Source: Pseudocercospora fijiensis CIRAD86 (taxonomy: Eukaryota > Ascomycota > Dothideomycetes > Mycosphaerellales > Mycosphaerellaceae). Taken from it: DNA of 64,000 nt. Location of the stretch: assembly GCF_000340215.1 (NCBI RefSeq), contig NW_006921532.1, positions 8,623,409-8,687,408 on the forward strand, read 5' to 3'. The notes beneath the pieces are model-generated. The model was given only the letters and a program-made list of their open reading frames with translations. It did not search any database and was not told the origin of the DNA. The position numbers and the translations under genes are program-made. The first letter of the stretch is position 1, and each line of letters starts with the position of its first letter. Shown here in pieces: positions 6,291-23,622 of this stretch.

Positions 6291-7052
6291 GGCCTTAGTA
6301 GTAACATTATAGGCCCTTAGCCTTCTTCTTGTTCTTTGTACTAGTCTAATACTTATCTAATAACTTAGCTATATCCTCGAAGGAATCTTTAGCCTCCTAC
6401 GAGTCCTATTTAGGTAAATAGCCTTACTATCTTAGGAGGTACTCCTTCTTGCCTTGTCTAGTCCGATGCTTTAGGATACGTTCTATAGACTATAGCTCTT
6501 CACCGTCGGCTAGTATCTCTTTATATTTAGTAGGGGCTTCTTTAGGGCCTCCGCGGTAGTAGTATAGTTTAAGGAGGGAGATATAGAAGGTATTATAGAT
6601 AGTGTAGTATAGTAGGAGCTATAACTAATAGGCCTAGCTATTGCCCTTCGGTTCTCGGATTCGGAATAGGCTAATAAACCGTAGTGCTAGTTTAGGGCGC
6701 GTTTTACTATTAGGTAATAGGTGTTTACGGATACAGAGGTTCTTTATACTAAGTATAACTATATCGCCTTGCTTAAAGGTTATCGGTATATAGTGTTTGT
6801 TATAATAGGCCTTCTAATAGGCCTAGGCCTTTGCTAGTTTATTAGCTATCTTAGCGTAAATCTCTCGCATCTTTTAAACCCTCTCGATAGCCGCTAGTAT
6901 TTTAGGGGCTTAACGCGCTTCCCTTTCCTTGCGCTCGGCCTCGAGCGAGGTAAATAGATCTTGTAGTAAGGCAGCGTTTTAGCCTATTATAGCTATATAT
7001 AGTAAAACCTTAGTTAATGAATGCACGCTATTATTATATACAAATTCGGCCG
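6291..7052 (-). pseudogene. Chr-2 pol C-terminus (integrase end, chromodomain)
   Basis: Minus-strand remnant of the integrase C-terminal domain and chromodomain, colinear with Chr-3 13735-14490. A chromodomain marks the chromovirus clade, where it is thought to guide integration to heterochromatin. The gene continues upstream at 23623 after removal of hAT-2. Confidence 0.75.
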
Positions 7053-7060
7053 GTTATAGG

Positions 7061-7080
7061 TAGACCCCGTAGTGGTTCGG
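7061..7080 (+). repeat. hAT-2 left TIR
   Basis: 20 bp, identical to the reverse complement of 23595-23614. It is followed by several copies of TTGGTTT. Confidence 0.95.
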
Positions 7081-7492
7081 GTTGGTTTAGTTTGGTTTAC
7101 TAAGCCGAAACTCTAGTTTGGTTTAGGTTGGTTTGCTAAGCAACTATATAAGTAGCTAGTTCGAACCATATAATTTATCGGTTTTTAAGAAGTATACGAA
7201 TGTATACGTAGCTTCAAGCAAGCCCTTTGTAAGACTTAGCAGTATAGCCGGTAGCGTAGCCGGCATTTTTAGTCCTTAGTACTTATAGAATTTTCGAATC
7301 CTACTTAGGCTACGTAGTTGTATAAAGGTACTTATATAACCTCAAATCTATAGACAATTAGCTAAAGGCACTAACTAATCAAAAGCATATATACATATAT
7401 ACAAGGCATTATAGTTCAGTTCGGAAACTGCACTCCTTAGGTATGAATTTTATCCTTTCGTTTACGGTTCAATTCCCTAACTGCTTAGTAGA

Positions 7493-8283
7493 ATGTCTTT
7501 ATCTAGATCTAGGCAGAACTTATCGATTTCCCTAGAAGTCCTCCTCCTTAAGAAGTTTATACACTTTCCTACCGAACTATTCGACAATATTAAGTACTAG
7601 GATAGCTCCTCCCTCGGTATCGGTATAGTATATAAAAGAGCTATAAGGCAGCTCTACAGAACGTTCTACCAGTTACTCGCTATACTAAGGCCGAATACTA
7701 GTTCGTTCCTTAGAACTCTTAGTTATTTAGGAGATATAAAGGGTAGGGCAGGTAGTAACTTCGTATTATATAAGGAGGTAGAGGCTGCTATAGAAGAGGC
7801 CTTTAACCTATAGAAGATAGTAAAAGATATAGAGGCAGCTACAGGTCTAGGTACCTAGTTGAATTTCTAGTAGGTAGAGTATAAAGATATTTAGAGGGAG
7901 TATTAGGTAGAGTTGCGAAGGCAGGTATATAATATACTCTAGAAAACAGGGATAGTGCCTATAACTATAACTATTAGGCTCTTCAACCTTCCTTATTTTT
8001 CCCTATTTTCTTTTTATAAAAATCTAAACTAATATAAATCAACCGGAATGTCTATCTTCTTTTAGTTCTTTAAAAAACCTAGCAGCGTAGCTAGCAGAGT
8101 AGCCGGCAGCGTAGCCGGCAGCGTAGCCGGCCTTTTTACTCCTTAGTACTAACGGGATTTTAGGAGACTTCTATTCCGTACGGCTAATAAAGTATACTAT
8201 ACTATATATATATACTTAGAGAGTATTTAGAGCGCCGTATATAGCGCCGTATAATAGCGGCTTATTTCGCATATAGAAAAGCT
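7493..8283 (+). pseudogene. Unknown ORF in hAT-2 left arm, probably spliced
   Basis: Not recognised. It begins with ATG (MSLSRSRQNLSISLEVLLL...) and reads for about 165 codons with only RIP-type stops. The composition is basic at the start, then mixed helical (EVEAAIEEAFNL). A candidate intron ends at TACTAAC...TTTTAG (8151-8163) and contains GCCGGC repeats at 8081-8132, like the introns of the minus-strand genes. A GTATAT donor after CGAAGGCAG near 7923 is possible but not certain. It converges on the H3-like gene on the opposite strand. Real coding status is likely; function unknown. Confidence 0.45.
8081..8132. repeat. GCCGGC-centred tandem repeat (putative intron)
   Basis: About four copies of an AGCGTAGCCGGC-type 12-mer, upstream of a TACTAAC...TTTTAG acceptor on the plus strand. 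Confidence 0.7.
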
Positions 8284-8356
8284 TATAGATAACACTACGA
8301 ACATCCTTTCTACTAGAACATCTATCCTACCTAGTACCGTCTCGAATGTAGACATT

Positions 8357-8809
8357 CTAGCCTTTTAGAATCTAATCGAGTACTTTAAAATCCTTATCTA
8401 TAATCGTTATACGCTTCGCGTAGATAGCTATAAGGTTAACCGCTAAAATAGTATTAGTATAGTCCGAAAAGAGGTAGAAGAGAAATATATATTCGAAGAT
8501 ACGAACTAGGTAGGCTTCTATAGCCTCTTAAAGGGCGCCTATCGCGGAGGCTTAGAAGCGAAGGTCCGTTCTATAATCCTAGGCAATTTCGCGAATAAGT
8601 CGTTAGAAAGGAGCTTTACGGATTAGGAGCTTAGAACTCTTCTAATATTACCGAATCTAACGGAGGGCTACGGCTAAAGAAGGATTAGTAAAAAGATAGT
8701 AAGAATGCCGGCTACGCTGCCGGCTACGCTACCGGCTACGCTACCGGCTACGCTACCGGCTATAAATAGGACTTACTTCCTAGGCGCTATCGACGCTTCG
8801 CACGATTGC
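8357..8809 (-). pseudogene. Histone H3-like gene, fold-coding exons and end of exon 1
   Basis: Minus-strand histone H3. Exon 1 ends at 8777 (...RRQRLG plus one base). Intron 1 is 8674-8776: GTAAGT donor, TACTAAT branch, CTTTAG acceptor. Exon 2 (8491-8673) starts CC GTA GCC CTC CGT, so the junction rebuilds GTVALR; it continues IR.Y.KSSKLLIRKAPF and LIREIA.DYRTDLRF, then ASAIGAL.EAIEAYLV. Intron 2 is 8443-8490 (48 bp, ACTAATACTATTTTAG acceptor). Exon 3 reads VNLIAIYAKRITIIDKDF and stops near 8357. The whole fold aligns to canonical H3 without gaps. Stops are RIP-type (Gln codons), and IYAKR is probably IHAKR. The last helix (KVLD.ILKG) lacks the usual RRLRGER arginines. Chr-3 splits exon 1 at 8809; the rest is at 16121-16352. 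The joined gene is 178 codons if the assumed start and stop are right, against about 136 for canonical H3. Confidence 0.88.
8705..8762. repeat. GCCGGCTACGCT tandem repeat inside H3 intron 1
   Basis: Nearly five copies of a 12-mer (GCCGGCTACGCT, one-base variants), wholly inside the predicted first intron of the H3-like gene. Confidence 0.85.
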
Positions 8810-9006
8810 TATTAGGGCTAAAGAGGCTATACGTGATTGGCATGTAACTAGGCCGAGTAAAGCTAGGGTCTCGATGCCTTAGGCAGGGCTTAGCGCTTAG
8901 CGTTAGGCTAACTCTCCTGCCTTCCTCCCTCTCCTCCTAGATCCTTATCGAATACTACACTGATTTACTACTACCCTATCTACCTGCTAACATAACCCTT
9001 CTTATA
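8810..9006 (+). repeat. Chr-3 5' LTR (197 bp)
   Basis: Begins TATTAGGGC (TGTTAGGGC before RIP) and ends CCTTCTTATA. It holds the 11-mer atcgaatacta at 8947-8957, complementary to the bases just after the LTR, so the R region probably starts near 8947. Confidence 0.92.
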
Positions 9007-9017
9007 TAGTATTCGAT
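9007..9017 (+). promoter_or_regulatory. Putative self-priming primer-binding site, Chr-3
   Basis: tagtattcgat immediately follows the LTR and is the exact reverse complement of 8947-8957. In Tf1-type elements the first 11 nt of the transcript anneal to the primer-binding site next to the LTR; length, position and perfect pairing match that arrangement. Chr-2 shows the same pair (28370-28380 with 28430-28440). Confidence 0.75.
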
Positions 9018-9039
9018 CTACCCTTTAAGGGCAGTAGCT

Positions 9040-10605
9040 AGATAGTCCTTATTTTAAGCTTTTAGCGGTATAGCTATAATAACTAATCTAACTATATTGC
9101 GCCCGAAGAACGGGACCTATACGTACTATTCTATCGAAACAACCGTACTAATTATTAAGCAAGGCCTTCTATACGGCCTATTATACCGAGTTAATCGCAC
9201 TAAGCCGATATCTACTAATTCCGCTACATCCGCATCTTAGGGGCCTATAATACATTATTAGTGTTACCCCTTACAATAGCCGGCTTATTACGAAGCAACA
9301 ACAACCGTGCTACCGCTAGCAGCGCTAGCAATAACAACGCTAGTAGCACAGTTCCCGCTAAAGTGCCTACTAAAGTGCCTCCTACTAAAGAGCCTACCGG
9401 AGAGCCTGTTAAAGAAGAACCTATAATTCTAGGTAACGACCTAGAATTGCCTATCGACGACATTCTTAACAATATTATTAACCGTCGATATAGCTAACTA
9501 GCCTTTAGCCCCCAACTAGTAGGGAGACTCTAAGAAGCTACCTAAAACAGGCTTACTGCCCTACGTTAAGAACAATAGCTAAAGGATAATCTCCTCGAGA
9601 TTCGCCGCCTATAGGAAGCCCTAACAACTACTGCTAGACTAGAACTAGTAGCAGGACCTTCCATTTAAAAGAAGGATACTAAGCTTAAAGACTGTACCGT
9701 ATTTAATAGCTCTAGCCGCAAGCAGTACAATAATTACATACATAATTGTAAATTGAACTAGCGGAATGCACTAAGGGCCCTGCTAGACGACTATTCGCTA
9801 GTCGTCTATGCTATGTAATACATTAATGGAGACCTAAAACGCACCTAGGATAACTATTTTGACTCCCTTAACGATTAGACCGCTATTTAGTAGCAGACCT
9901 ACAAAACCATTATGCTAGATACCCTTAGAAACCCTATACTAAGGCAATAATATGCTTAGGACTAATACCTTCGAGCTAAACAAAAGACTAATCAATCGGC
10001 TCGCTTATTTAAGGCCTATTTAAAGACCCTCGAGGACGATCTACTAGCTAAGACCGACTCTATCTAGATTTCCGAAATACGCCCTAAATTGCGATAGGAA
10101 TTGGTCCTTAAATTAGACCGCCGCCGTGTGTTTGAACAGACCAACCTAATACGCATTCAATTTATAGTCGAGGTAGAAACAGCTAAACGAGCTATCTAGC
10201 TCTAGTAACGACTAGAATTAAGGATCCGACCTGCTAGCAACCGTAGCAACCGTAGCCGCGGAGGAAACCAAGGTTCCTACTAAGACAACAATACTAACAA
10301 TAGGAACAGTAACGATCGTAGAAGAAGCCGTAGCCGGCGGCTATATAGAGGAGGCCGCGATAGGGGCCGTAGAAGGGGCTCGTATCCCTATAGTACTAAT
10401 CGCTCGGCTAATAATAGCGGCAATAGCTATAGCAATCCCCTAACCGGACTAAAGTGCTTCAATTGTAACAGTACTAGCTATCTACTAGGCCAATACGACA
10501 AACCTAAGAACTAGGCCCGAATCGACCGTACTACCGCTAAGTACCGAAAGCACCTTTTAGTAGCTAACGCTACCCCTATAGGCCAACCTTCGAAAAAAGA
10601 ATAAG
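9040..10605 (+). pseudogene. Chr-3 gag
   Basis: Capsid/nucleocapsid polyprotein remnant. The N-terminal part includes a Lys/Pro/Thr-rich segment (9261-9497, repeated KVP.KEPT motifs) that reappears in Chr-2 on the minus strand at 27875-28123. A capsid-like region near 9690-10200 (DCTVFN..SRKQYNNYIHN, later YLRAKQKTNQSARLF) precedes an Arg/Asn/Gly-rich tail. A zinc knuckle near 10450-10500 reads CFNCNSTSYLLGQYDK, where the family expects CxxCx4Hx4C. His and the last Cys have become Tyr, as RIP predicts; the Chr-2 copy keeps the last Cys (near 26870). RIP stops throughout. Confidence 0.8.
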
Positions 10606-13600
10606 CGCCGCACTAACTGTTAGCCTTATACGGCGTAAGACTATCGATATTGTGCTAGCTATTATACGTACCTATCTCGTATCGGACACGTATAGAACTA
10701 ACTATAAGACTAAGGTTATACTAGATCTAGGAAATTCAGTTAGCGCCCTTATTAGCTATCGCCTAGCTAAGCAATTAGACCTTCGACAACTGCCTAGGAC
10801 TAACCTACTAACCCTTGCTTAGTTTAATAACGCTCGGCACTTGACCTACGGAGCCTACTATGTCTATATAGCCCTAAAGGACGACCTCGGCAATAAGCGC
10901 CTGCTAAACTTTACTGCCTACGCAGTAGACATAGATAGCCTCCTCTCCGATATTATTATTAGCAACCCTGTTCTTAAGTACTACGCTATAGTTATAGACC
11001 TAGGCCTTTAATAGTAGCGATTTAGAATCGCTCGGAAAGAGGATATTAAACACATCGATGTTAGCGAGTGCCCTAATAATATTAGGGTCCTATTTATTAG
11101 CAACCTAACCCTAGCTAATCCGACGGTCGACCTGCTCGGTAATAATAATAAGCCTATGCTCCCTAATAGCATAGATCCTAATTAGCTTGCTCGTATACTA
11201 GAGCCTATCCGAGAGACCTATATTAATGTGTTTAAATACTACCTAGCATCGACATTGCCTATATTCAAAGAGACGGATTATAAGATTGACATTATAGAGG
11301 GCAAAGAGGTTCCTTTTAGCCCCCTCTATAACCTTAGTAAACGAGAGCTTGCTATACTACGTAAGTACCTAGAGGAAAACCTAGCTAATAGCCGCATTCG
11401 GTATAGTAACAGCCCTACTAGTGTACCTATCCTGTTTGTTCTAAAGAAGGATAGTAGCCTACGTTTATACGTCGATTACCGTAGACTTAATGCTATTACT
11501 ATTAAAGACCGCTGTCTACTTCCGCTTATTAATAAGACCCTCGATCGCCTTTCTAGGGCTTACTTCTATACTATACTAGATATTAAGGATGCGTACTATC
11601 GTATCTGTATTCGCAAGGGCGATGAATAGAAGACGGCCTTTCGCACTCGTTATAGCTATTTCGAGTACTTAGTTATACTATTTAGGCTAGCTAATGCCCC
11701 TACTACATTCTAGTCCTATATTAATCGGGCCCTTTCGGGCCTATTAGATTACCTCTATATAGTTTACCTAGATAACATCCTAGTTTATATACACTCTCCT
11801 AACATTGCGGAATACTAGGCTATAGTCCGTAAGGTACTCGATCGCCTAAGGGCCTATAGTTTATACTGCAAACCCTCTAAATGTACCTTTGCTGCTAAAG
11901 AGGTATCCTTCCTTAGCTTCCTCGTATTAACCGAAGGTGTTAAGGCTAATCCTAATCGGATTAAGACTATTACTAAGTAGCCAACCCCTACTAGTATTAA
12001 GGAGCTTCAATTATTCCTCGGCTTCGCTAATTTCTATCGTCGCTTTATTAAGGGCTATTTACGGCATATAATGCCCCTAACTGAGCTTACTAAAACTAAG
12101 GCTAACCTAACTAGAGAGTTCAAATAGACTAACAGAGCACAAGCCGCGTTTAACGGTTTGAAGAAGCGATTCACTAAAGTCCCTTTATTACACTATTTTA
12201 TACTAAATAAGCAGATCCGAATTGAGACTAACGCTTTACAGTTCGCTATATTAGCTATAATGTCTTAGCAGTTAGACAGTAACTACTACTAGCACCTAGT
12301 TGCCTTCTTCTCGAGAAAGATAATTAATGCTAAGCGTCGCTACGAGACCTACGAGTAAGAGCTCTTAGCTATTATCGAGGCCTTTAAGCATTAGAGGCAC
12401 TACCTCGATAGGGCTTAATATACAATACAGGTCTATACAGACTATAACAACCTCCGTAGAATCACGAAGGTTACTAGGGTTATAGGTCGATAGGCTAGAT
12501 AGGCCGTCTACCTCGCTAGGTTTGATTTTAATATATTACATCGGCTAGGCGTAAGCAACCCTACTAATAGCCTATCTAGGCGACCTAATTACGACAGCGG
12601 GACTTAGCAATCCATTAATTCATTGTTTCTAACCCTGTAGTATAAGATTGCTATAGCCTATATTGTTAATAAGCACGCGTAGGATAAGCGGCTTACCGGA
12701 CTCCGCGACGGCTTAAAGCATATTAATGCTCTTGCTATATTAATAGTGCGTATTAAGGCAAGAGCTAAGGACACAGATAGGAGAAGTTATAATAACTCCC
12801 TAGTCGATATCGCTATATACAGTAACAGCGATTAAAGCACTAATGCAGTTAATCCGGCTACTAGTGCTATTAGATGTATATAATGCATACCTCGTTTAAT
12901 AGCGAGGGTGCTATTAAATAACCTTGCAAATAGGGATAGTTAATCGTTTATAGACGAGCTATTACGTGCTTAGTAGAGGGACGCCTTTGCTGCTAAACGT
13001 ATCGATAAGCTTATAAGTAGGCGAAAGACTCGATCTAGTAAGAGTAACAATTAGTCGATCGATAACAAAGGTTATTTAAAGTTTAAGGGCAGATACTATA
13101 TCCCCGCTAAACATTCGATCCGACAAGAACTTCTTAAGCGACACTATAATAGTAAGCTTGCCGGTTACTATAGCACAGAGAGGTCGTACGAGCTACTATC
13201 GCGCATATACTACTAGCCGAATAGTAAGCGGGATATAAAGGACTACGTAAACACGTATACCGTATATTAACGAGTTAAAGCGCCGAAGCACTTGCTATTC
13301 GGCGAGTTGTCTTCACTCCCTGTCCTAAAGAAGCTATTTGCAGAGCTTATAATAGACTTTATTATAGGACTTCCGCCTACTAAGCGTAGGGGGGAAGTGT
13401 ATAATACTATCCTTGTTATAGTAGATCGATTTACTAAGGGCGCTCGATACATCCCGGCGCGTAAGGATTAGACTGCTATTAATATAGTAGAGGCGCTATA
13501 GACTAACATCTTCTATACCTATTAGGGAACCCCTAAAGGGATAGTCTCTAACCGAGGCTCGATATTTATATCGCACTATTAGAGCGAAATATGCCTATAG

Positions 13601-14488
13601 CTAAGACTGAAGCATCGGCTATTAACAGCCTTCTATCTACAGACTAACGGTCAAATAGAGAGGCAGAATGCTACCCTATAGTAGTACCTACGCAGTTACA
13701 TTAATAAGAACCCCGAGGACTAGGTCAACCTTCTATAACCGGCCGAATTTGTATACAACAATAGCGTACATTTATTAACTAAGGTTTCACTATATATAGC
13801 TATAATAGGCCAAAACGCTGCCTTACTATAAGACCTATTTACCTCGCTCGAGGCCGAGCGTAAGGAAAGCGAAGCGCGTTAAGCCCCTAAAATACTAGCG
13901 GCTATCGAGAGGGTTCAAAAGATGCGAGAGATTTACGCTAAGATAGCTAACAAACTAGCAAAGGCCTAGGCCTATTAGAAGGCCTATTATAACAAACACT
14001 ATATACCGATAACCTTTAAGCAAGGCGATATAGTTATGCTTAGTACAAAGAACCTCCGTATCCGCAAACACCTATTACCTAATAGCAAAACACGCCCCAA
14101 ACTAGCACTACGGTTTATTAGCCTATTCCGAATCCGAGAACCGAAGGGCAATAGCTAGGCCTATTAGTTATAGCTCCTACTACACTACACTATCTATAAC
14201 ACCTTCTATATCTCCCTCCTTAAACTATACTACTACCGCGGAGACCCTAATAAAGAAGCCTCTACTAAATATAAAGAAATACTAGCCGACGGTAAAGAGC
14301 TATAGTCTATAGAACGTATCCTATAGCACCGGACTAGGAAAGGCAAGAAGGAGTACCTGCTAAGATAGTAAGGCTATTTACCTAAATAGGACTCGTAGGA
14401 AGCTAAAGCCTCTTTTAAAGACATAACTAAGTTGTTAGATAAGTATTAGACTAGTATAAAGAACAAGAAGAAGGCTAAAAGCTCGTAA
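10606..14488 (+). pseudogene. Chr-3 pol (PR-RT-RH-IN-chromodomain)
   Basis: Protease region near 10715 (VILDLGNSVSALIS). RT core 11228-12110: RLYVDYRRLNAITIKDR, then AYFYTILDIKDAYYRI, then the polymerase motif at 11765-11776 as YLDN instead of YLDD. RNase H near 12180-12600, ending LGVSNPTNSLSRRP. Integrase 13090-14130 with H.KRHYN zinc-finger remnants, LIIDFIIGLPPTKRRG, VSNRGSIF (expected VSDRGS, Asn at 13550-13552) and GQIERQNAT. Chromodomain near 14310-14420 (ERIL.HRTRKGKKEYLLR). The frame ends in TAA near 14488. Loss of catalytic Asp fits TGAC to TAAC. Order and chromodomain place it among fungal chromoviruses. Confidence 0.92.
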
Positions 14489-15718
14489 TGTTACTAAGGC
14501 TTAGGATTAATAGCACCCCCGGGGTGCTATTAGCTAACTAATTAGAGGCCGACAAACTAGGACAATAAGACTACACTACTATAGTAGACGCGCACTAAGC
14601 ATTAACAAACGCGCTATAACTGTTAACTAATCGCCTGCTCTTTTAAGGGATCTACCCCTTTACTAGCGCACGTAACAAGGCCCTCCTCTTAGTATTTAAG
14701 TCCCCCTCTTGTTCCTTTCTTCTAACGAGGCCTCGAGGCCTAAGCGATCGGCGAAGGCGTACGCGTAGCGGATAGTGCCGGCGGTGTATTAGAAGAAACG
14801 GCGCGCGCCTATGTTAGTAACGGTATTGCCGAGTTGTTATTAGTTAAAGAAGGAAATTAGAAGCAAGGTAAAGTTAGCGCTAAGATAGCTAGCGCCGCTA
14901 TTATTAACATTACTTGCTATTATTACTGCGCCTATAGACATAACCTTACCCGTACTACGAGCCTAAGGCACTAAGGGGTTAATTAAAACTTTGATTAAAA
15001 CTTTAAGCTGCCTAAAAGATTAAGCGACTAATAGACTAACTAACTAAGGGCAAAACTATAGAGCTAAGCTAGCTAGGGTCGATCTTGCGGATAATAGGTT
15101 ACTCCTCGATCTATCTAACCCTTTAAGCGAGGCGAACCTCTACTACTGCACTTATAATAGCCTTTACTTATAGAAACTAGAAGAACTGAGTTTTTTAAAA
15201 AGATATAATTAGTTAACACTTAAAGGCTACTAAACCTAACTAATTAGGGCTAGTAAAACTACGATAGTAAATAATAGCTCTCGTAATAATAAGAGCAACC
15301 CTCGGAACGGACAAACCCTTAGAAGCGGACAACCCTCGGAAGCGGACATTACTAGGTCTTTTAAGAGTAGACGCAAAGAACTCGATACGATATTACTTAG
15401 AATAGAGGTAGGGCTATAATACCTCGTACGTCTACCTATTATAGTAGGGAAGACGCGCTCGTATTATAATTAGTCGAAGGCCCTTAATTCTTATAGATAT
15501 ATATTACTTTATAGTTTATTATATATAGAGATAGCGCAGTTAGAGTTGTATATTATATTGTTTAGAGGTAAGGTTTAACATAGTTATATAATTAGGTAGT
15601 TAAGTATTTAATTTAGCGCGGCTAAGCAGCTTATTAGACTTGCTAAGTTAGCGGTAATAGAGGTCGGGATTAGAATATAGGCAGGCTACGAGGGCGCGGC
15701 CTTTAGAAGGGAAGCGTG
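14489..15718 (+). other. Chr-3 3' noncoding region
   Basis: 1.2 kb without a followable gene, conserved in Chr-1 and Chr-2. It starts with the palindrome at 14508-14532 followed by gctaactaattagagg, and ends in a purine-rich tract (agaagggaagcg) next to the LTR, the likely plus-strand primer. Confidence 0.75.
14508..14532. repeat. GC-core palindrome, Chr-3
   Basis: Best-preserved chromovirus copy: TAATAGCACCCC, centre C, GGGGTGCTATTA. It begins about 20 bp after the pol stop. Confidence 0.9.
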
Positions 15719-15915
15719 TATTAGGGCTAAAGAGGCTACACGTGATTAGCATATAACTAGGCCGAGTAAAGCTAGGGTCTCGATACCTTAGGCAGGGCTT
15801 GGCGCTTGGCGTTAGGCTAACTCTCCTGCCTTCCTCCCTCTCCTCCTAGATCCTTATCGAATACTATACTAATTTACTACCACCCTATCTACCTGCTAAC
15901 ATAACCCTTCTTATA
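15719..15915 (+). repeat. Chr-3 first 3' LTR (197 bp)
   Basis: Directly follows the polypurine tract; begins TATTAGGGC. Confidence 0.9.
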
Positions 15916-15918
15916 GTG

Positions 15919-16115
15919 TGTTAGGGCTAAAGAGGCTACACGTAATTAGCATGTAACTAGGCCGAGTAAAGCTAGGGTCTCGATGCCTTAGGTAGGGCTT
16001 AGCGCTTAGCGTTAGGCTAACTCTTCTGCCTTCCTCCCTCTCCTCCTAGATCCTTATCGAATACTTCACTAATTCACTACTACCCTATCTACCTACTAAT
16101 ATAACCCTTCTTATA
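15919..16115 (+). repeat. Chr-3 second, tandem 3' LTR (197 bp)
   Basis: Separated from the first by gtg (15916-15918); it keeps an unmutated TGTTAGGGC start. The TSD ATTGC follows it, not the first LTR. Confidence 0.9.
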
Positions 16116-16120
16116 ATTGC

Positions 16121-16352
16121 TACTAGCAGTAGAAGCGCTAGTTATCGTCTTACGTAGAGCCTTACTCGCCGTTATCTTACGCGGAGCCTTACTCGCGACG
16201 CCCTTTCTAGTACCGGAGCTAGCGGTAGTAGTAGCAGCCCTCTTACGTTAATATACTATACTCGTTCTACTATTTCCGGTCTTGTTACGACCCGTAGAAG
16301 CACTAGGTCCCTTCTTGCGAGGCGTCGTAACTTAGTTAAGTAGACTCGCTAT
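16121..16352 (-). pseudogene. Histone H3-like gene, exon 1 (N-terminal tail)
   Basis: Minus-strand exon that continues at 8809 once Chr-3 and its TSD are removed. The start I favour is ATA at 16350-16352 (ATG before RIP; reading .ASLLN.VTTPRKKGPSAS), giving a tail of about 88 residues before TVAL, twice the canonical length. The diagnostic part is TRKGVASKAPRKITASKALR. It aligns with the H3 tail so that the positions corresponding to R8, K9, K14, APRK, K23 and R26-K27 are kept, while S10 is Gly and no Lys stands at position 4. A second basic motif, TTPRKKGPSASTG, lies nearer the N-terminus. The linker before GTVAL is about three residues longer than in H3. A TTAACTAAG acceptor just inside the exon is an alternative that would shorten it. 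Confidence 0.82.
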
Positions 16353-16639
16353 TATAAAAGTCGTCGAATTAAGGAAAAAAGTGCGTTACGAAGGTATACG
16401 AAGGCGCGCGCGGAGCGAGGGTATTACGGAAGTAGTAGATATAGAGCGTAGAGGTATAGGTATCGATACGAAGGTTAAATATAGCGGTAGTATCGCGGTA
16501 TCGCTAGGCAATAGAGTAAGCTTCGCGCAAGCCTATATTATAGTAACGTTAGAGTAAGGAAAGAAGGCAGGCATAGCTAAAAAAGGTAGGCACGGCTAAA
16601 AAAGGCAGGTACGGGAGACTTTGAAATATAGCCGGCATA
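16353..16639 (-). other. hAT-2 spacer, no gene recognised
   Basis: Upstream of the H3-like start; a candidate promoter region. GCCGGC pairs begin near 16625. No clear coding frame. Confidence 0.4.
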
Positions 16640-17550
16640 TATAGCCGGTATAGTAATAGGCGAAAGCCTCCTTTTAATAAATAGCCGGCGTAATAATAGT
16701 ATCTTACTATAGTATAGATATTCTTTAGTAATGCCTTTACTAGCTATAGTAATCTTATAAGTAACCTAGGCCTATTACTAGTAAATATAAGAAATATTAG
16801 GTAGGCTATACTAAACAAGCTAGTTATTTAGTAGGAAAAGGCCTACTACCGTCTCTATATACCGGCTACGAGTGCCGGCTATCGCTCTAAATTCAACTCC
16901 GCCCTATCTCGGAGGCTAAGGTACCGAGCGGAAACCCTATAGCTTATATTTACTCGGTTATCGCGGAGCGCTTATAGGTAAGGTATTAGAAAAGAGTATA
17001 AAAAGTACGAGAAGAGTATCCTAGGATATAGGTCGTAAGTGAATAAGAGTAGTACGCCTAGTTATTTATATAGTACGTTACTCTATACGACTAAGAGCCT
17101 ATATTATCTTATGCTTCGCTTATAAGACCTCGACTCTACTAGTATACTATCGATCTCTTCCTCGGTCGCTAATACGCTGTCTTAATTCTTCTTCGAGTTG
17201 CCGGACTTAGTACGCATCTATAGCTATATAATAGCGCTACGTATTATAGAGAATTTCTCGTTAAAGTTTCTCTCTCGTAGGCTTGCTATCTACCTCGTAG
17301 TATAGAGTATTAAAGTGCTAATACTAAAGAATCTCCTTATAGTTAGGATACTAGGGCTCCTTAGGACCTTTGTGTTTTAGGTCTAAATAGAGACGTATTA
17401 TAAACGTTCTATCGCCCTTTCGCTTACTACCCGCTAGGTCGCGATATACGAAGAAACTAATCTAAATGTAGCTCGTCTCTATAATAGCCAGGTAAATATA
17501 GAGCGCTAGGTTTCTACTTCGTACCTTAGATTTAGGGACGGCGCGGAGAT
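16640..17550 (-). pseudogene. Unknown ORF X in hAT-2
   Basis: Not recognised. The minus-strand frame reads LALYIYLAIIETSY.I, then RTFIIRLYLDLKHKGPKEP, later DSKPTRENFNEKFSIIRSA and EEEIDSILVESRSYKRS, with only RIP-type stops across about 200 codons. It lies downstream of the second histone fold on the same strand, and a GCCGGC pair at 17568-17585 (GTATCC donor candidate, TTCTAATT branch candidate) lies between them. It could be a separate gene or a C-terminal extension of that histone; the splice phase does not settle this. A faint look of fungal tyrosine-recombinase-type (DUF3435) sequence is not strong enough to name it. Confidence 0.4.
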
Positions 17551-17620
17551 AAAATTAGAAATATAGCCGGCACCTATAGCCGGCAAAAGGATACGAAAAT
17601 AGGCCTCCTCCTAGGTTAAT

Positions 17621-17870
17621 CTAACGACTAAATACAATTTCCAACTAATCCGCTATAAACCGACGCCGAATTTTAGCTAGAAGCTATATATCTTTATTTT
17701 AAAGAGTAACCCGCTTCGTATAGATAGCAAGGAGGTTTAAAAGCTTAAGCTCGGTTACGAGAAATGCCTCCGTAGCTTCCTAAAGAGTACTAATCGCCTT
17801 AGCCGTAAATCGTATACTAGACCGAAAATCTAATATATTTCTCGGACGAGTCGCTAGAAAGGAGTCTTAG
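17621..17870 (-). pseudogene. Second histone H3-like fold, truncated by assembly gap
   Basis: The minus-strand frame from the gap edge reads KTPF.RLVREI (canonical KLPFQRLVREI). After a one-base frame change it reads AISTL.EATEAFLV, then LLNLLAIYTKRVTL.NKDI, corresponding to H3 SAIGALQEA.EAYLV and NLCAIHAKRVTI..KDI. Spacing between FLV and the AI.xKR block equals that of H3. It differs from the first H3-like gene in sequence and lacks its second intron, so it is a distinct paralogue and not a recent duplicate. EAFLV is also the form seen in CENP-A, but the loop-1 region is too damaged to classify. The N-terminal part lies in the gap; TAG near 17621 may be its stop. Confidence 0.78.
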
Positions 17871-18453
17871 NNNNNNNNNNNNNNNNNNNNNNNNNNNNNN
17901 NNNNNNNNNNNNNNNNNNNNNNNNNNNNNNNNNNNNNNNNNNNNNNNNNNNNNNNNNNNNNNNNNNNNNNNNNNNNNNNNNNNNNNNNNNNNNNNNNNNN
18001 NNNNNNNNNNNNNNNNNNNNNNNNNNNNNNNNNNNNNNNNNNNNNNNNNNNNNNNNNNNNNNNNNNNNNNNNNNNNNNNNNNNNNNNNNNNNNNNNNNNN
18101 NNNNNNNNNNNNNNNNNNNNNNNNNNNNNNNNNNNNNNNNNNNNNNNNNNNNNNNNNNNNNNNNNNNNNNNNNNNNNNNNNNNNNNNNNNNNNNNNNNNN
18201 NNNNNNNNNNNNNNNNNNNNNNNNNNNNNNNNNNNNNNNNNNNNNNNNNNNNNNNNNNNNNNNNNNNNNNNNNNNNNNNNNNNNNNNNNNNNNNNNNNNN
18301 NNNNNNNNNNNNNNNNNNNNNNNNNNNNNNNNNNNNNNNNNNNNNNNNNNNNNNNNNNNNNNNNNNNNNNNNNNNNNNNNNNNNNNNNNNNNNNNNNNNN
18401 NNNNNNNNNNNNNNNNNNNNNNNNNNNNNNNNNNNNNNNNNNNNNNNNNNNNN
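17871..18453. other. Assembly gap (583 N)
   Basis: Run of N between the second H3-like fold and the transposase C-terminus; it probably hides that histone's tail and the end of the transposase gene. Confidence 0.99.
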
Positions 18454-21240
18454 TCTTTAGTAACCTACCTTAGCGATTCTAGTAAAGGAGATAGTATCGG
18501 AATACTATAATAGATTCGAAGGTAGTAGGCGAGTATATTCGATTAAAGCGGCCCTAGTAACGAGCGATACTAAAAGACCTCTTATAGCCTATACCTACGC
18601 TCGGGATAGCGAGGACGTCCCGAGCGACCGACGCTATCGTTAGAAACTTAGGCTCTAACCGCTACTATATAGCGAGAATATCGTCTCCGAATTCGTCTAG
18701 AAGACCGGTAAGATCTAGAGATTATTAGCCCTTTTTCCGAGCCTACGGGTTTATACTTACTCGCGCGCCGATAGAGATCGAACTCTTCTTTATTTACTTT
18801 AGTAGTTGCTTCCTCTTCTACCTCTACTTCCTACCTACGAAACAGGTATAATATCGGAGCCTTCTAAACCTTCTTTTTCTTTATAGGAGCTGTATTTAGA
18901 CTAGTTTCTTTCCGACGCTCGTAGAACATCTTTTCTAGAATAGTCTAGTAATGCTTCGGCTATACCTCGTCCGCCTTCTATTCCGGCCTCTACTAGTATA
19001 TATCCTTTTCTACCGGGTTAAGCAAGTACGCAACGCTATAGATATCCCCGAACGAGTTAAAGGTAGTACTATAATATTTATACAACTTAGTATAGGAGGT
19101 GTCTATAGCTTTCGTTATAGCTACTTTTTAGGGAACGCTCTTCTTAGCTAGCTTAGCTACGGTTTCCTCGAGCTCGTTAAAGAGCTAGTTATAGTACGCA
19201 AAGACAAGGTAGATCGTCGGTCCTCGGGTTCTTCTAATCGTAGTAGTAACCTTCGCGTAATGCTTACTAATATCGACGAGATACTCTACTTAGCGCTATT
19301 CGGCGGCGGTAAGGCCGAGCTACTTAATACCCTCGGAACTCTAATAGATCTCGAGAGCGGTACGTAAAGTATATCCCCTCGTAACTATATAGAAAGTCGA
19401 ATCGAACCGGGTCTTAACGTCTTAGGTAAAACGGAGTAGGCGCTAAGGAGGCCGCTTTTGCTATCGCTTATTCTATACGATATTCTAGGTATCGGTTTTA
19501 GGGCGCTCGATTAGGTTCTTTTAAATAGCCTCGAATCGGTTATATCTCTATAAGCTCGAGTTCGTATATATTGCTAGACGACGAAGCTAGAGAAAAAGAG
19601 TTAGAACTATACTAGGTTGCCAGCTATAGGTACCGGCTACGGATAAAAGTTATACCTTATATAAAACGAGAGCGAGGCTCTCTACCTTATCCCGTCTTAT
19701 TACTGTAATAAGTTTCTCGACTTTCGACTTTGCTTTATCCTTATCTAGGATCTTCTATTAGTCGTCGTTTAATAGTACAATTTTAAGCGTCTTAAAGAGG
19801 GCTCGGATCGCGATTTAAACTATATAAGCGAGGTAGGGAAACTTCTATAGGGATATAACTAGCAACGACGTCGGCTCCGATTCGTTAGGGCTAGGGCTAT
19901 TAATAGGCTCCTCTTTATCGTTATTATCGTGCGTATTGTCGTACGTATCCGGAATCGTAGCGAGCTTAATATTCGGAAGATTAAGCTAGATTATAGACCT
20001 TATAATCTCCTCTACGTACTCGACCCTATCGATACAATTAGTAATTTTAAAGACATATACGAGTAAATTGTATATACAACGCCTTATACAATGTTCGATT
20101 ATTACTAGCGTTGTCCGTAGTAATCGAGATTAGTTTCGTTATTACGCTAACTCTGTCTATTGCCGTATAGATAAGCTTCGCTATATCCTTACTAGTATAG
20201 GAACCTAGAATTTTAGGGAATCCGATTATAAGTTCCTAGAGTTTCTAATCCGAATTAATAAAGTATAGTATAATCGAGAGGAAGGAGGCTCTTATAGTCC
20301 GGCTTAACTAGCTATCGATAGCAATAGCTACTCGGCGAGTATTACGGAGGATCTCCCGAATGTCGTCTAACGTAGCCTCTTTATTCTTTTCGAATATAAT
20401 ACGCTAGGTTGTCGCGCCGAGAAATAGGGGAGGGTAGTTTATAAGATATAGGTATATCTTCTATATAGACTCCCTTTCGTAGAAGTCTTCCGGAAGACCG
20501 TTTATAGCTAGCATTTCGTTTACTAGTTGCTTAAAGTCTTCGAGGAAGAAATCGGTAGCCTTTAATCCTAGAGCTTCCTTAAGCGTAGCCTATAATAATT
20601 AGCTAGACCTCTACGGTTAATTTAAGTAGCCGGAATCTGTAGCCGGAATCTGCAGCCGGTAGCTATAGCCGGCAGCTATAGCCGGCATTTTAGAAGACGT
20701 ACCTCTTTCTAGAACGCTATATCTATATTAACTCTCCTCTCTCCTTAAGATTCCCGACACCGTTTAGAATAGAGATAGTTCGTAGGCGATAAGTTCCTAT
20801 CCCCTAGTTTCGGGTGTTTTAAGATTAAACCGTAGAAGTTGTAGATAATTACTAGTTAACCTTTAAGTCGAGAAGTCGTATAACGGTGCAATGCCCCCTC
20901 TATAAAGAACTTCTAGAATATATCCGTTCGCTCCTTACTCCCCTATCGCATCGAGTACTTCCGGAGTTTATACTCCTTCGAACGTAAGTATAAAGGGAAC
21001 TATATCTTATAGACCTATTAATTGAACTGCTCTATATACTCGGGTTTCTAAAGATACGCCTAGCTAGCCTTTTCGAAGATTTCCGGGTTAATACTCGATA
21101 TTCTTATATCTCCGAACAACCTTCTACTTAGACTCCGTAAAGGTAAGGACTAGATAGTAGTACCCTATAATAAATTCCTACTACTAGGATTCGGAGAGGA
21201 TAAATCTAGCCCTAATCGTCGTCTAGGACTTAATAGGCTC
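18454..21240 (-). pseudogene. hAT-2 transposase (hAT family, with introns)
   Basis: Minus-strand hAT transposase; the start is uncertain (21100-21240). Key blocks: RRVAIAIDS.LSRTIRASFL and LIIGFPKILGSYTSKDIAKL, then ISITTDNASNNRTLYKAL near 20110-20140 with catalytic TTD intact. Further on come LRRLAIYTNSS, DVKTRFDSTFYIVTRG, and the hATC dimerisation end near 18490-18720 (DDILAI..RLEPKFLTIA, then DVLAIPSVGIGYKRSFSIAR). Two predicted introns keep the frame: 20590-20702 (GTACGT...TTATAG, KE/ATLKEA) and 19587-19655 (GTATAA...TTCTAAC...CTCTAG, LYK/LRRLA). Both contain GCCGGC motifs. It should catalyse cut-and-paste mobility of hAT-2; here it is dead through RIP stops. Confidence 0.9.
20627..20688. 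repeat. GCCGGC repeat in transposase intron
   Basis: About five GCCGG-containing units, GCCGGCTATAGCT-like toward the donor end of the intron, entirely inside predicted intron 20590-20702. Confidence 0.75.
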
Positions 21241-21477
21241 GAAGGTAAGTATACGACCTCCTCTCGACGTTGTCGCAATCTCGCTCGTATACTAGACTAT
21301 TTCGACTATCGTCTCGTTATTACCCTTCCTAGTATAGCGCCTAGTATATATACAATGTCGGTCGGTATATTTTAAGGTTTCGTACGGTAAGGTAAGGACT
21401 TAGGAGTAGTAGATATATACTAGTAGCTATAGGGAAACACCCTTTCTTTTATAGCATCGTATCGTTAGGAACAGCTA

Positions 21478-21606
21478 GGTAGTAAATAGCTAGCTACCTT
21501 TTTTTTTGTTTCCTAGCTACCTAACTACTAGATTTTTTTTCCTAGCTACCCTAGCTAGCCTAACTACTAGAATTTCTTTCCTAGCTACCCTAACTACCTG
21601 AATTTT
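21478..21606. repeat. Tandem repeat (CCTAGCTACC..TAACTACTAG units)
   Basis: Roughly four imperfect 30-40-bp units joined by T-rich runs. On the minus strand they read as repeats of LG.LGKK, so they either end the upstream gene or lie just after it. Confidence 0.7.
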
Positions 21607-23024
21607 GCCTTCTATACGGCGGCTCTCTCCTACTAACGGAACCGAGCTACTATACCTAACGAATCTAAGCTCGTTTTTAGTCTTAATCTATCCTCTTTCG
21701 GTATAAGACACTCGATAAGCAAATGCTTAGGCCGAGTCTAACTACGAAACCTAAGACTAACTAACAGCTCTATTAACTAATCCTAATCCTCGAACTCCTT
21801 CCGCTTCTTAGTAAAAACCTTAAAGAGCGCTCGAGCTTCTTCGGGTACCTACGGAGTAGTCGAGATAAAGCCGTATCGCTAAAATAGGTAATCCTTCGGA
21901 GGCTTATATAGAGATTTAGAGAATTCTAACGCTAACCTATCCTACTAGTAGCTTAGATTCCGGATATAAGCCCTTTCTACCTTAGTAAAGATTTTATATA
22001 GTAGTAGCACTCTGCCTTCGAGAAACGCTTTCTATTTAACTATTAGTATCTGCCGGCTACGAACGCCGGCTATATATGCCGAGTATAGAATAATTACCTA
22101 TACCCCTTCCTCCTATAGTAACACTTCTGCCGTCCCTAGATACCTAGCCCCGATCGCATTAATCGTAAGCCACTTTGCCTTTATAGACGTAAAGGCTTCG
22201 CTCTAATACTAATAAAGAAACTTCTACTCTATATCGAGGATATAAAGACGACTAGTCTCGATTCTAATCCTTACTAGCTTTTCGTAGTAGCTTTAACTAT
22301 AATTTTCTAGATTAATAGGACTTATACCTTAGCCCTTTACTAGTATCTCGTCTCTTTAACTGTGCTCGATCTACTCCTAGCGCTTATCGTCTATAGCGTT
22401 AGGCCCTAAGACTATACCTATTACTAGATCGACGTATAGTATCTCCTCGCTTTTTTCAGTTCCTTTATTCGTAGTATTAAGCTCTATCGCGGCATCCTAA
22501 ACTCTAGCATTGTTGTTCTCGGCTATCTAAATATCTCCGTTACTATCGGTCGTATCGATAGAGGTAGCGGCTATAGGTCTGAATGCTATTAGTTAACGTG
22601 TTAAAGAAAAATATGCCGGCTATAGCTACCGGCTACGGCTGCCGGCTACGGCTGCCGGCTATAGCTACTAGCTACGGCCGCTAGCTAGATTGACTTACGC
22701 TGCTAGAACTTTACGCTCGAAAACTAGCCGCAATTCTTTCCTTCTCTTAGCCTTCTCTTAGGTTGTCTTCTTATTCTAACCTTCACTTTTTTCTATAGGC
22801 GCTAGCTATCGATAGAATGCCTTATTCCGCGCCTTTCTTCTCTTATCCTTAGCTCTTTTATCCTTATCTATCTTGTCCTTTCTCTCGCGGTCTCGTACGG
22901 AATTCTTCTTCGTAGAGTACTCCTCTTTAGTCTTACGCTTTTTAGTTAGACGCTTAGGTAAAACAAACTCGCGGTCTTTAGTTCTATCTTCTATTTAGCG
23001 CGCGGCGCGCTTCTCTCTTACTAT
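21607..23024 (-). pseudogene. Unknown three-exon gene in hAT-2
   Basis: Not recognised. The proposed start is ATA at 23022-23024 (ATG before RIP), giving a strongly basic N-terminus rich in Lys/Arg/Asp/Glu (RLTKKRKTKEEY, later RERKDKIDKDKRAKDKRRKA). Intron 22579-22698 (GTAAGT...TTAACTAAT...ATTCAG, LAA/PIAATS) and intron 22032-22097 (GTAATT...TACTAAT...AAATAG, EEGV./KAFLEG) both keep the frame and both carry GCCGGC motifs. Later exons read RIETSRLYILDIE.KF, then DRLALEFSKSLYKPPKDYLF and PEEARALFKVFTKKRKEFE. Many stops are TAG where Trp or Gln fits. The basic start suggests nuclear localisation or nucleic-acid binding (inference). It lies upstream of the transposase on the same strand. Confidence 0.55.
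22615..22690. repeat. GCCGGC repeat in intron of unknown gene
   Basis: Six units of GCCGGCTATAGCT / GCCGGCTACGGCT type inside predicted intron 22579-22698. Confidence 0.75.
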
Positions 23025-23160
23025 TATAAGGGAAAGGGGCGGGGGCGTAGCGTATAGTAGTTATTATCGGTATAGGTATAGAGGAAGAAGTTAAAAGTAT
23101 AAGAATATCGCGAAGCCCTAATTATTGCCGCCTACGTAACGTTATATAGGTAAGCTTTCG

Positions 23161-23480
23161 CAACTACGGCAACTACGCCCCGGCAATAGCAACTACGCCC
23201 TAGCAACGGCAACTACGCCCTAGCAACGGTAACTACGCCCTAGTAACGGTAATAAAGCGTAGTAAATACAACCTAGTAACTATTATAGCCGGCAATCGTA
23301 GCCGGCAGTCGAATAAGAGTGTCCTTATAGCAAAACTACGCCCTAGCAACGGCAACTACGCCCTAGCAACGGCAACTACGCCCTAGCAACGGCAAAAGAG
23401 CGTAGTAAATATAACAGAGTTACTATTATAGCCGGCAATCGTAGCCGGCAGTCGAATAAGAGTGTCCTTATAGTAAAACT
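23161..23480. repeat. 20-bp minisatellite in higher-order array, hAT-2 right arm
   Basis: The unit aactacgccctagcaacggc occurs about 4.5 times at 23161-23250 and three times at 23335-23393. Each block is followed by a shared ~85-bp segment containing two GCCGGC motifs and gaataagagtgtccttatag, giving a period near 142 bp. Its subterminal position fits a transposase-binding array (inference). Confidence 0.85.
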
Positions 23481-23594
23481 AATACAGTCTCTAGTTCAAA
23501 CTAGGAATCTATATAGTTCGAAAAAACCAAACCGGAACTAGGGAGCTAGTTCGCCGCTAAGAAACCAAACTATATACGTTTGGTGGTTCGGAAA

Positions 23595-23614
23595 CCGAAC
23601 CACTACGGGGTCTA
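23595..23614 (-). repeat. hAT-2 right TIR
   Basis: Exact reverse complement of 7061-7080, followed by the TSD copy GTTATAGG. Confidence 0.95.
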
Positions 23615-23622
23615 GTTATAGG

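What the first reader, a model, noticed from the sequence alone, without database searches (positions are those of the whole stretch)
8357..16352. A hAT transposon encodes a complete histone H3-like protein
Seen: removing Chr-3 and two introns gives a continuous H3 on the minus strand of hAT-2. It has a tail with KAPRK and ASKA.RK, the exact GTVALR junction, KLLIRKAPF, LIREIA, TDLRF, ASAIGAL, EAYLV, AKR, and fold spacing identical to canonical H3. Both introns have fungal donor/branch/acceptor signals and keep the frame. The enclosing element is proven by perfect TIRs and an 8-bp TSD. Inference: either transduplicated host H3 or a transposon-owned histone that could mark, package or shield the element's chromatin. 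I know of no described hAT element carrying H3, though I cannot search.
Basis: partly seen in the sequence, partly recalled or inferred. Interest (0 to 1): 0.93.

Follow-up and report, generated by a model that had tools for sequence, protein, structure and literature searches.

The report
Known jumping gene with two histones
This is a stop-riddled copy of what is very likely an already published fungal jumping-gene family that carries two different histone H3 genes, which likely worked for the element before the fungus's presumed defence against repeated DNA mutated them.

Summary
Window 7061-23614 is a hAT-type element (identical 20-bp TIRs, 8-bp TSD GTTATAGG). Its minus strand encodes an H3: the window's own exons, with X at each stop, hit Pfam Histone at 5.7e-27. 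A gypsy-type retroelement (8810-16115) splits exon 1. The belief that no such element is described is wrong. Dhillon et al. 2019 (Mobile DNA) describe what is very likely this family in Pseudocercospora fijiensis: 784 H3-like sequences in 471 hAT elements, full-length 9.5-9.9 kb, 20-bp TIR, 8-bp TSD, all RIP-inactivated. Manning et al. 2013 describe an H3-carrying hAT in Pyrenophora. The two H3s are distinct paralogues (46-53% identical in the core), both present in three subfamilies. The published "16-aa insertion" behaves as a 48-bp intron; a second, length-variable intron lies one codon from a host H3 intron. Both argue against simple transcript capture of that gene. Its transversion-only dN/dS is 0.37 between two subfamilies, not significant in other comparisons. 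One H3 lacks Leu126 (mostly Ala), the other has Leu110: the two positions of an engineered bump/hole H3 pair. Verdict: known element, with a testable new reading of its histones.

The parts
7061..23614 (-). hAT-type element (16,554 bp here including the gypsy insert and an assembly gap; 9,596 bp in copy L031, which lacks the insert)
7053..7060 (.). target-site duplication GTTATAGG, left
23615..23622 (.). target-site duplication GTTATAGG, right
7061..7080 (.). 20-bp terminal inverted repeat, left
   Evidence: 20 of 20 identical
23595..23614 (.). 20-bp terminal inverted repeat, right
16121..16352 (-). H3-A exon 1, first piece: N-terminal extension and H3-like tail
8777..8809 (-). H3-A exon 1, second piece (beyond the gypsy insert)
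8674..8776 (-). H3-A intron 1 (103 bp here; 69-116 bp in the 25 of 26 copies in which the donor was found), GTAAGT donor, 12-bp minisatellite inside
8491..8673 (-). H3-A exon 2: start of the histone fold
8443..8490 (-). H3-A intron 2 (48 bp), likely the stretch read as a 16-aa insertion in the 2019 paper
8357..8442 (-). H3-A exon 3 with the terminal stop
17645..17870 (-). H3-B, 3' part of the second H3 gene; the rest falls in the assembly gap; one frame change near the gap edge
   Evidence: bounds counted by hand
17871..18453 (.). run of N (assembly gap); copy L031 has about 0.94 kb here, including the first part of H3-B
18454..20620 (-). hAT transposase region (approximate bounds; its 3' end runs into the gap), in several frames with stops; ITTDNASNN at 20098-20121, dimerisation-type motif at 18605-18625

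Best explanation
This is one copy, full of TAA/TAG stops and split by a retroelement, of what is very likely a published ~9.6-kb hAT transposon family of the fungus Pseudocercospora fijiensis that carries two different histone H3 genes, which likely served the element as its own H3 variants before repeat-induced point mutation (RIP) likely inactivated them. Shown: hAT-type ends, two H3 paralogues (A and B) in every long copy held, introns in A, three subfamilies that all carry both, CpA nearly gone and TpA in great excess. Inferred: the H3 coding sequence was captured from a fungal host long before the subfamilies split; the proteins were made, paired with host H4 and entered nucleosomes; their changed tails and H3-H3' interfaces altered chromatin in the element's favour, for instance by weakening silencing; RIP then ended the family. 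How such H3s would reach the element's own DNA is not shown; an effect over the whole genome is equally possible.
For: H3 identity: two histone stretches in one of six frames of L031, E 1.1e-43; 1.8e-31. Multicopy. Both A and B in all 20 long records, 19 distinct copies; 12 of these were picked by one of the two genes alone and all 12 carry the other; six were picked because they showed both. Three subfamilies by DNA identity; A (6 rows) and B (4 rows) are each one group across them with support of 100/99 or better. Introns: intron 2 is 48 bp in 26 of 26 copies, GT kept in 4 of 26; intron 1 varies from 69 to 116 bp in the 25 of 26 copies where the donor was found, some lengths not multiples of 3, while its acceptor lies at the same distance from intron 2 in 26 of 26. 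Constraint: transversion dN/dS of A, S1 x S2, 0.37 (95% 0.18-0.69); A+B 0.41 (0.24-0.73); one of these pairs read in the two wrong frames 0.88 and 1.17. All 188 in-frame stops in 26 A cores are TAA or TAG, none TGA. Transversion periodicity over the transposase region and both H3s. Published description.
Against: dN/dS is not below 1 with confidence for A in S1 x S3 (0.91 and 0.70) or S2 x S3 (0.55, 0.29-1.16), nor for B alone (0.47-0.70 in five pairs, every interval includes 1); pooled A+B, S2 x S3, 0.65 (0.37-1.26). No transcript or protein evidence. No H3-A core that I read is free of stops. The Pfam match for the transposase is below its curated cut-off (0.0066; 16.6 against 21.4 bits), and DUF659 was not found in my scans. 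The 2019 authors read the cargo as a captured transcript that was inactivated.
Confidence: 0.6

Rival explanations
1. Passive transduplication, the published reading: a host H3 transcript was picked up by a hAT element, copied along with it without any role, and inactivated by RIP.
For: PMC6710886: no intact copies, no intron recognised, 94% of H3-like copies similar to the third exon only. In my data H3-B has no intron at the GTVALR junction where the host H3 has one, as a transcript copy would; most dN/dS intervals include 1.
Against: H3-A has two introns, one of them a single codon from a host intron; A and B are 46-53% identical and both kept in three subfamilies; dN/dS 0.37 between S1 and S2; the tail keeps H3-type lysine contexts (by eye).
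Confidence: 0.3
2. The element captured the centromeric H3 (CenH3), and the cargo is a mobile centromere mark.
For: H3-A shares RQIRQYQKS with the host CenH3 in some copies and has a long N-terminal extension.
Against: The A(S1) core is 70% identical to host H3 against 57% to host CenH3 (B(S1): 57 against 51); neither has the longer loop 1 of the host CenH3; in the tree the host CenH3 groups with cnp1 and not with A or B.
Confidence: 0.03
3. The H3 match is a chance reading of repetitive, mutated DNA.
For: The first-stage reader joined four pieces across a 7.3-kb insert.
Against: PF00125 at 5.7e-27 with X at stops and no histone match for the backward control; in L031 and most other copies tail and core lie together without that insert (exceptions: L014, whose intron 1 donor was not found and whose tail was not read, and L016, whose tail is interrupted by other sequence).
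Confidence: 0.01

Closest known systems
Histone-H3-carrying hAT family of Pseudocercospora fijiensis (Dhillon et al. 2019, PMC6710886; text parts 1-5 of 7 read, supplements not)
   Same: Length, 20-bp TIR with two RIP-variable positions, 8-bp TSD, CpA-to-TpA bias, two H3-like sequences per full-length element, the second with 16 extra codons, location in AT-rich repeats; the intact host H3 sits on scaffold 6 there and on contig 6 here.
   Different: Nothing found in the element itself: I take the window to hold a copy of this family, though I had no published sequence to compare. My reading of the cargo differs: distinct paralogues, the extra stretch an intron, a second intron in H3-A, some evidence of constraint, and a weak hAT dimerisation match that the paper did not find; conversely I did not find its DUF659.
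H3L hAT element of Pyrenophora tritici-repentis (Manning et al. 2013, PMC3538342; abstract and section 20, part 1 of 2, read)
   Same: hAT with transposase, a further ORF and an H3-like gene with insertions in the tail that fits neither H3 nor CenH3.
   Different: 5.6-kb form (10 copies) and 2.3-kb form (16 copies), H3L nearly identical and mostly intact, with ESTs, one H3L per element; the 2019 paper found no DNA similarity between the two elements. I had no H3L sequence to compare.
DNA transposons carrying chromatin-modifying genes: TET/JBP in fungi, SET methyltransferases in Phytophthora elements (PMC12730594; passages read)
   Same: A DNA transposon with a gene that could counter silencing.
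   Different: Those are enzymes; here the cargo is a chromatin building block.
Engineered obligate H3X/H3Y heterodimers (Ichikawa et al. 2017, PMC5626479; passages read)
   Same: The design puts a hole at 126 (L126A) in one H3 and a bump at 110 (A110W) in the other; H3-A has a non-Leu residue, mostly Ala, at 126, and H3-B has Leu at 110.
   Different: Natural, with a much milder bump (Leu, not Trp); no dimerisation was tested.

Membership tests
hAT superfamily | short terminal inverted repeats | tested here: met
   20/20 identical; 258 hits of the TIR pattern in the genome, 0 for the backward control
hAT superfamily | 8-bp target-site duplication | tested here: met
   window 8/8, L031 7/8; only these two copies had both ends in hand
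hAT superfamily | transposase with C-terminal dimerisation domain | tested here: inconclusive
   PF05699 at 0.0066, 16.6 bits, below the cut-off of 21.4; motifs by eye; DUF659, reported in the paper, not found in my scans
Histone H3 | core histone fold of H3 type (PF00125) | tested here: met
   predicted helix order of H3-B as in H3, mean pLDDT 68.1, pTM 0.39, a model of modest confidence
Histone H3 | modifiable N-terminal tail | tested here: met
   H3-A S1 tail aligns by eye with the lysine contexts 9, 14, 18, 23 and 27 of the host H3, after an N-terminal extension; H3-B has a lysine-rich tail only
Histone H3 | forms nucleosomes with H4 | not testable with these tools
   -
CenH3 (CENP-A) | longer loop 1 and grouping with CenH3 | tested here: not met
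H3-carrying hAT of P. fijiensis (Dhillon 2019) | 9.5-9.9 kb, 20-bp TIR, 8-bp TSD, two H3-like sequences, the second with 16 extra codons, RIP bias | tested here: met
   9,596 bp in L031
H3-carrying hAT of P. fijiensis (Dhillon 2019) | host genome is P. fijiensis | tested here: inconclusive
H3L hAT of P. tritici-repentis | same H3L and transposase lineage | not tested
   no H3L sequence in hand; not among the rows listed

The most novel reading that the evidence does not exclude
The transposon encoded a co-evolved pair of H3s that prefer each other: H3-A with a hole at position 126 and H3-B with a bulkier Leu at 110 form heterotypic tetramers, a natural counterpart of the engineered H3X/H3Y pair, so the element builds asymmetric, host-distinct nucleosomes that resist silencing.
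Probability: 0.1. Interest if true: 0.85.

Novelty: already known. Interest (0 to 1): 0.38.

Why it matters
A transposon that keeps its own histones would be a direct way for a mobile element to act on the chromatin that silences it. The phenomenon is in print as gene capture followed by inactivation. If the H3s were kept by selection, as part of the evidence suggests, they become a natural experiment on which H3 tail and interface changes a selfish element favours. The interface observation would also give a testable natural case of asymmetric nucleosomes.

Tried and rejected
Shared His113-to-Tyr in A and B looked at first like a private interface change (349 of 356 database H3s examined hold the motif, and all 349 have His). 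Rejected: the codons are TAC in 26 of 26 A copies and TAT in 23 of 23 B copies and CpA is almost gone, so it is what RIP does to His. For the same reason an apparent Pro-to-Leu before GTVALR, the Val at 126 in some copies, and residue 110 of H3-A (ATA in all 26) are not used as evidence.

A and B as one clade: not supported and not rejected (AU p 0.28), so one capture or two stays open.

Protein-database searches for close relatives of A or B in other species had 593, 7881 and 7995 hits, of which 120 each are listed; searches scored only the candidates sharing most words. No listed row is above 64% identity, and those with names are called H3 or H3-like or are uncharacterised; one search was swamped by proteins of about 280 aa with two H3 domains. 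Pyrenophora H3L was not among the rows listed. Pfam scans of six frames of L031 found the two histone stretches and nothing else at E 0.01. A fold search was not run, because the H3-B model is of modest confidence. The genome tool holds no relatives of this genome, so the other five species could not be checked. The last sub-step of the script failed (a library was missing); its first part ran and is what I use.
Full report
WHAT WAS CLAIMED.

CHECK. The exons 16352-16121, 8809-8777, 8673-8491 and 8442-8357 join in one frame. With X at every stop the window's own protein scores 94.8 bits against Pfam Histone (E 5.7e-27); its core written backwards has no histone match. The element is 7061-23614, with 20-bp TIRs identical base for base and GTTATAGG on both sides. 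A run of N at 17871-18453 is an assembly gap.

GENOME. The window lies in an unnamed 73.9-Mb genome of 30 contigs. The H3-A exon 2-3 region has 39 further places at 98-99% identity (40 scored of 406 candidates). Histone-domain matches number at least 150 (150 scored of 772 candidates); these include the host H3 on contig 6 and a host CenH3 on contig 5, whose best solved relative is named cnp1 (fission yeast by recall). A TIR pattern with two ambiguous bases occurs 258 times, its backward control never.

ANATOMY. Copy L031, without the insert, is 9,596 bp. It contains two histone stretches in one forward frame: H3-B, and about 2 kb downstream H3-A. All 20 long records held contain both; L021 and L031 are the same copy, so 19 distinct copies. 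Six records were chosen because they showed both; 12 were chosen by one gene alone, and all 12 have the other. A third coding-like region upstream, by transversion periodicity, carries hAT-type motifs; its Pfam match to the hAT dimerisation domain (0.0066) is below the curated cut-off. DUF659, reported in the literature, was not found in my scans.

SUBFAMILIES. In the stretches that match L031, copies L034-L037 and L043 (S2) are about 74-87% identical, L039 and L040 (S3) about 84-92% apart from one short piece at 75%, and the other copies (S1) about 90-100%, chiefly near 95%. All carry A and B. In a tree of 24 rows (23 different), A (6 rows) forms one group and B (4 rows) another, with support of 100/99 or better; A plus B as one clade is neither supported nor rejected (AU p 0.28). 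Core identities: A(S1) to host H3 70%, A(S2) 58-60%, A(S3) 57%, B 57-59%, A to B 46-53%.

INTRONS. In 26 distinct copies H3-A has a 48-bp stretch that ends in TTTTAG; 4 of 26 (L012, L019, L025, L042) keep GT at its start and the other 22 have AT, as expected where TpG becomes TpA. Removing it restores the H3 spacing at that point (by eye). This fits the 16-aa insertion that the 2019 paper reports in the second H3-like sequence and puts down to mutation. The other intron, GTAAGT to AG at the GTVALR junction, was found in 25 of 26 copies (not in L014). It varies from 69 to 116 bp, holds a 12-bp minisatellite, and several of its lengths are not multiples of 3, while the acceptor stays at one distance from intron 2 in 26 of 26. 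The host H3 has an intron at the same junction, one codon earlier (by eye). This argues against an intronless transcript copy as the source of H3-A in its present form, although introns gained after capture are possible. H3-B shows no intron at that junction.

CONSTRAINT. Using transversions only, which RIP does not make, dN/dS of the H3-A core is 0.37 (0.18-0.69) and 0.37 (0.17-0.77) for two S1 x S2 pairs, 0.91 and 0.70 for two S1 x S3 pairs (intervals include 1), and 0.55 (0.29-1.16) for one S2 x S3 pair. Five H3-B pairs give 0.47-0.70, all with intervals that include 1. Pooled A+B: 0.41 (0.24-0.73) for S1 x S2, 0.65 (0.37-1.26) for S2 x S3. One H3-A pair (L041 x L035) in the two wrong frames gives 0.88 and 1.17. 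Per codon position the S1 x S2 transversion rates are 0.090/0.085/0.188 for A and 0.044/0.020/0.069 for B, against 0.21-0.33 in two stretches taken as non-coding, where the alignment is poor. Several pairs were tested without correction, so this is support, not proof. In the 26 H3-A cores there are 188 in-frame stops, all TAA or TAG.

RIP CAUTION. L031's element has 74 CA against 1,498 TA dinucleotides. Apparent His-to-Tyr, Pro-to-Leu and Ala-to-Val changes must therefore be discounted, and I withdrew one early lead for that reason. What RIP cannot explain: residue 126 of H3-A is not Leu in any of 26 copies (Ala 17, Val 8, the Val codon being what RIP makes of the Ala codon, Met 1; one search recounted 25, leaving out L034), and residue 110 of H3-B is Leu (CTT) in all 23 copies in which the motif was found, of 24 tried. 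Among 349 database H3s with the motif (of 356 examined, all of them hits of my own searches), none has Ala at 126 and 2 have Leu at 110. In yeast, L126A is lethal when both H3s carry it, and the engineered pair combines a hole at 126 with a bump at 110 (PMC5626479, passages). That H3-A and H3-B pair with each other is inference.

TAIL. By eye, the H3-A S1 tail keeps the lysine contexts of H3 9, 14, 18, 23 and 27, after an N-terminal extension; the number of KAPRK-type modules differs among copies. H3-B has a lysine-rich tail with little resemblance.

PRIOR ART. Dhillon et al. 2019 (PMC6710886; parts 1-5 of 7 read) describe the family in P. fijiensis and five relatives: 784 H3-like sequences in 471 elements of P. 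fijiensis, 133 of them full-length (9.5-9.9 kb), 20-bp TIR, 8-bp TSD, one or two H3-like sequences per element, all inactivated, read as capture of a transcript. Manning et al. 2013 (PMC3538342; abstract and section 20 part 1) describe an H3-like gene in a hAT of P. tritici-repentis with ESTs. A 2026 paper repeats the 784 figure (PMC13041039, passages). I found no printed statement of the intron reading, of the two H3s as distinct selected paralogues, or of the 126/110 observation in what I read of these papers or in my searches; subscription papers and supplements were not covered.

VERDICT. The added value is a revised reading of its histone cargo and one speculative but cheap test.

Noticed in passing
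window 8443-8490; compared in 6 S1, 5 S2 and 2 S3 copies: H3-A intron 2 shows no transversion between S1 and S2 over 48 bp and 0.5 on average against S3, although the coding sequence of one S1 x S2 pair differs by 33 transversions in 267 sites; gene conversion, splicing constraint or a retained-intron isoform are possible.
   Followed up: partly
window 15718-16115: The retroelement insert appears to have two LTR-like units in tandem at its right end (15718-15915 and 15916-16115) against one at the left (about 8810-9004).
   Followed up: no
window 7245-7271, 8084-8140, 8698-8754, 20626-20691, 22610-22675: Clusters of a GCCGG-rich repeat recur inside the element in both orientations, one of them inside H3-A intron 1.
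   Followed up: no
window 6900-7059 and 23615-23973: Both flanks of the hAT match the inside of the gypsy-type insert in inverted orientation, so the hAT itself seems to have landed in a related retroelement.
   Followed up: no
L034, L037, L039 and L040, H3-A tail: The tail has extra lysine modules in L034 and L037 and is shorter in L039 and L040: part of the H3 tail looks like a tandem repeat that changes length.
   Followed up: partly
L036 against L035, H3-A loop 1: Two copies of one subfamily differ in a block around loop 1, which suggests recombination between element lineages.
   Followed up: no
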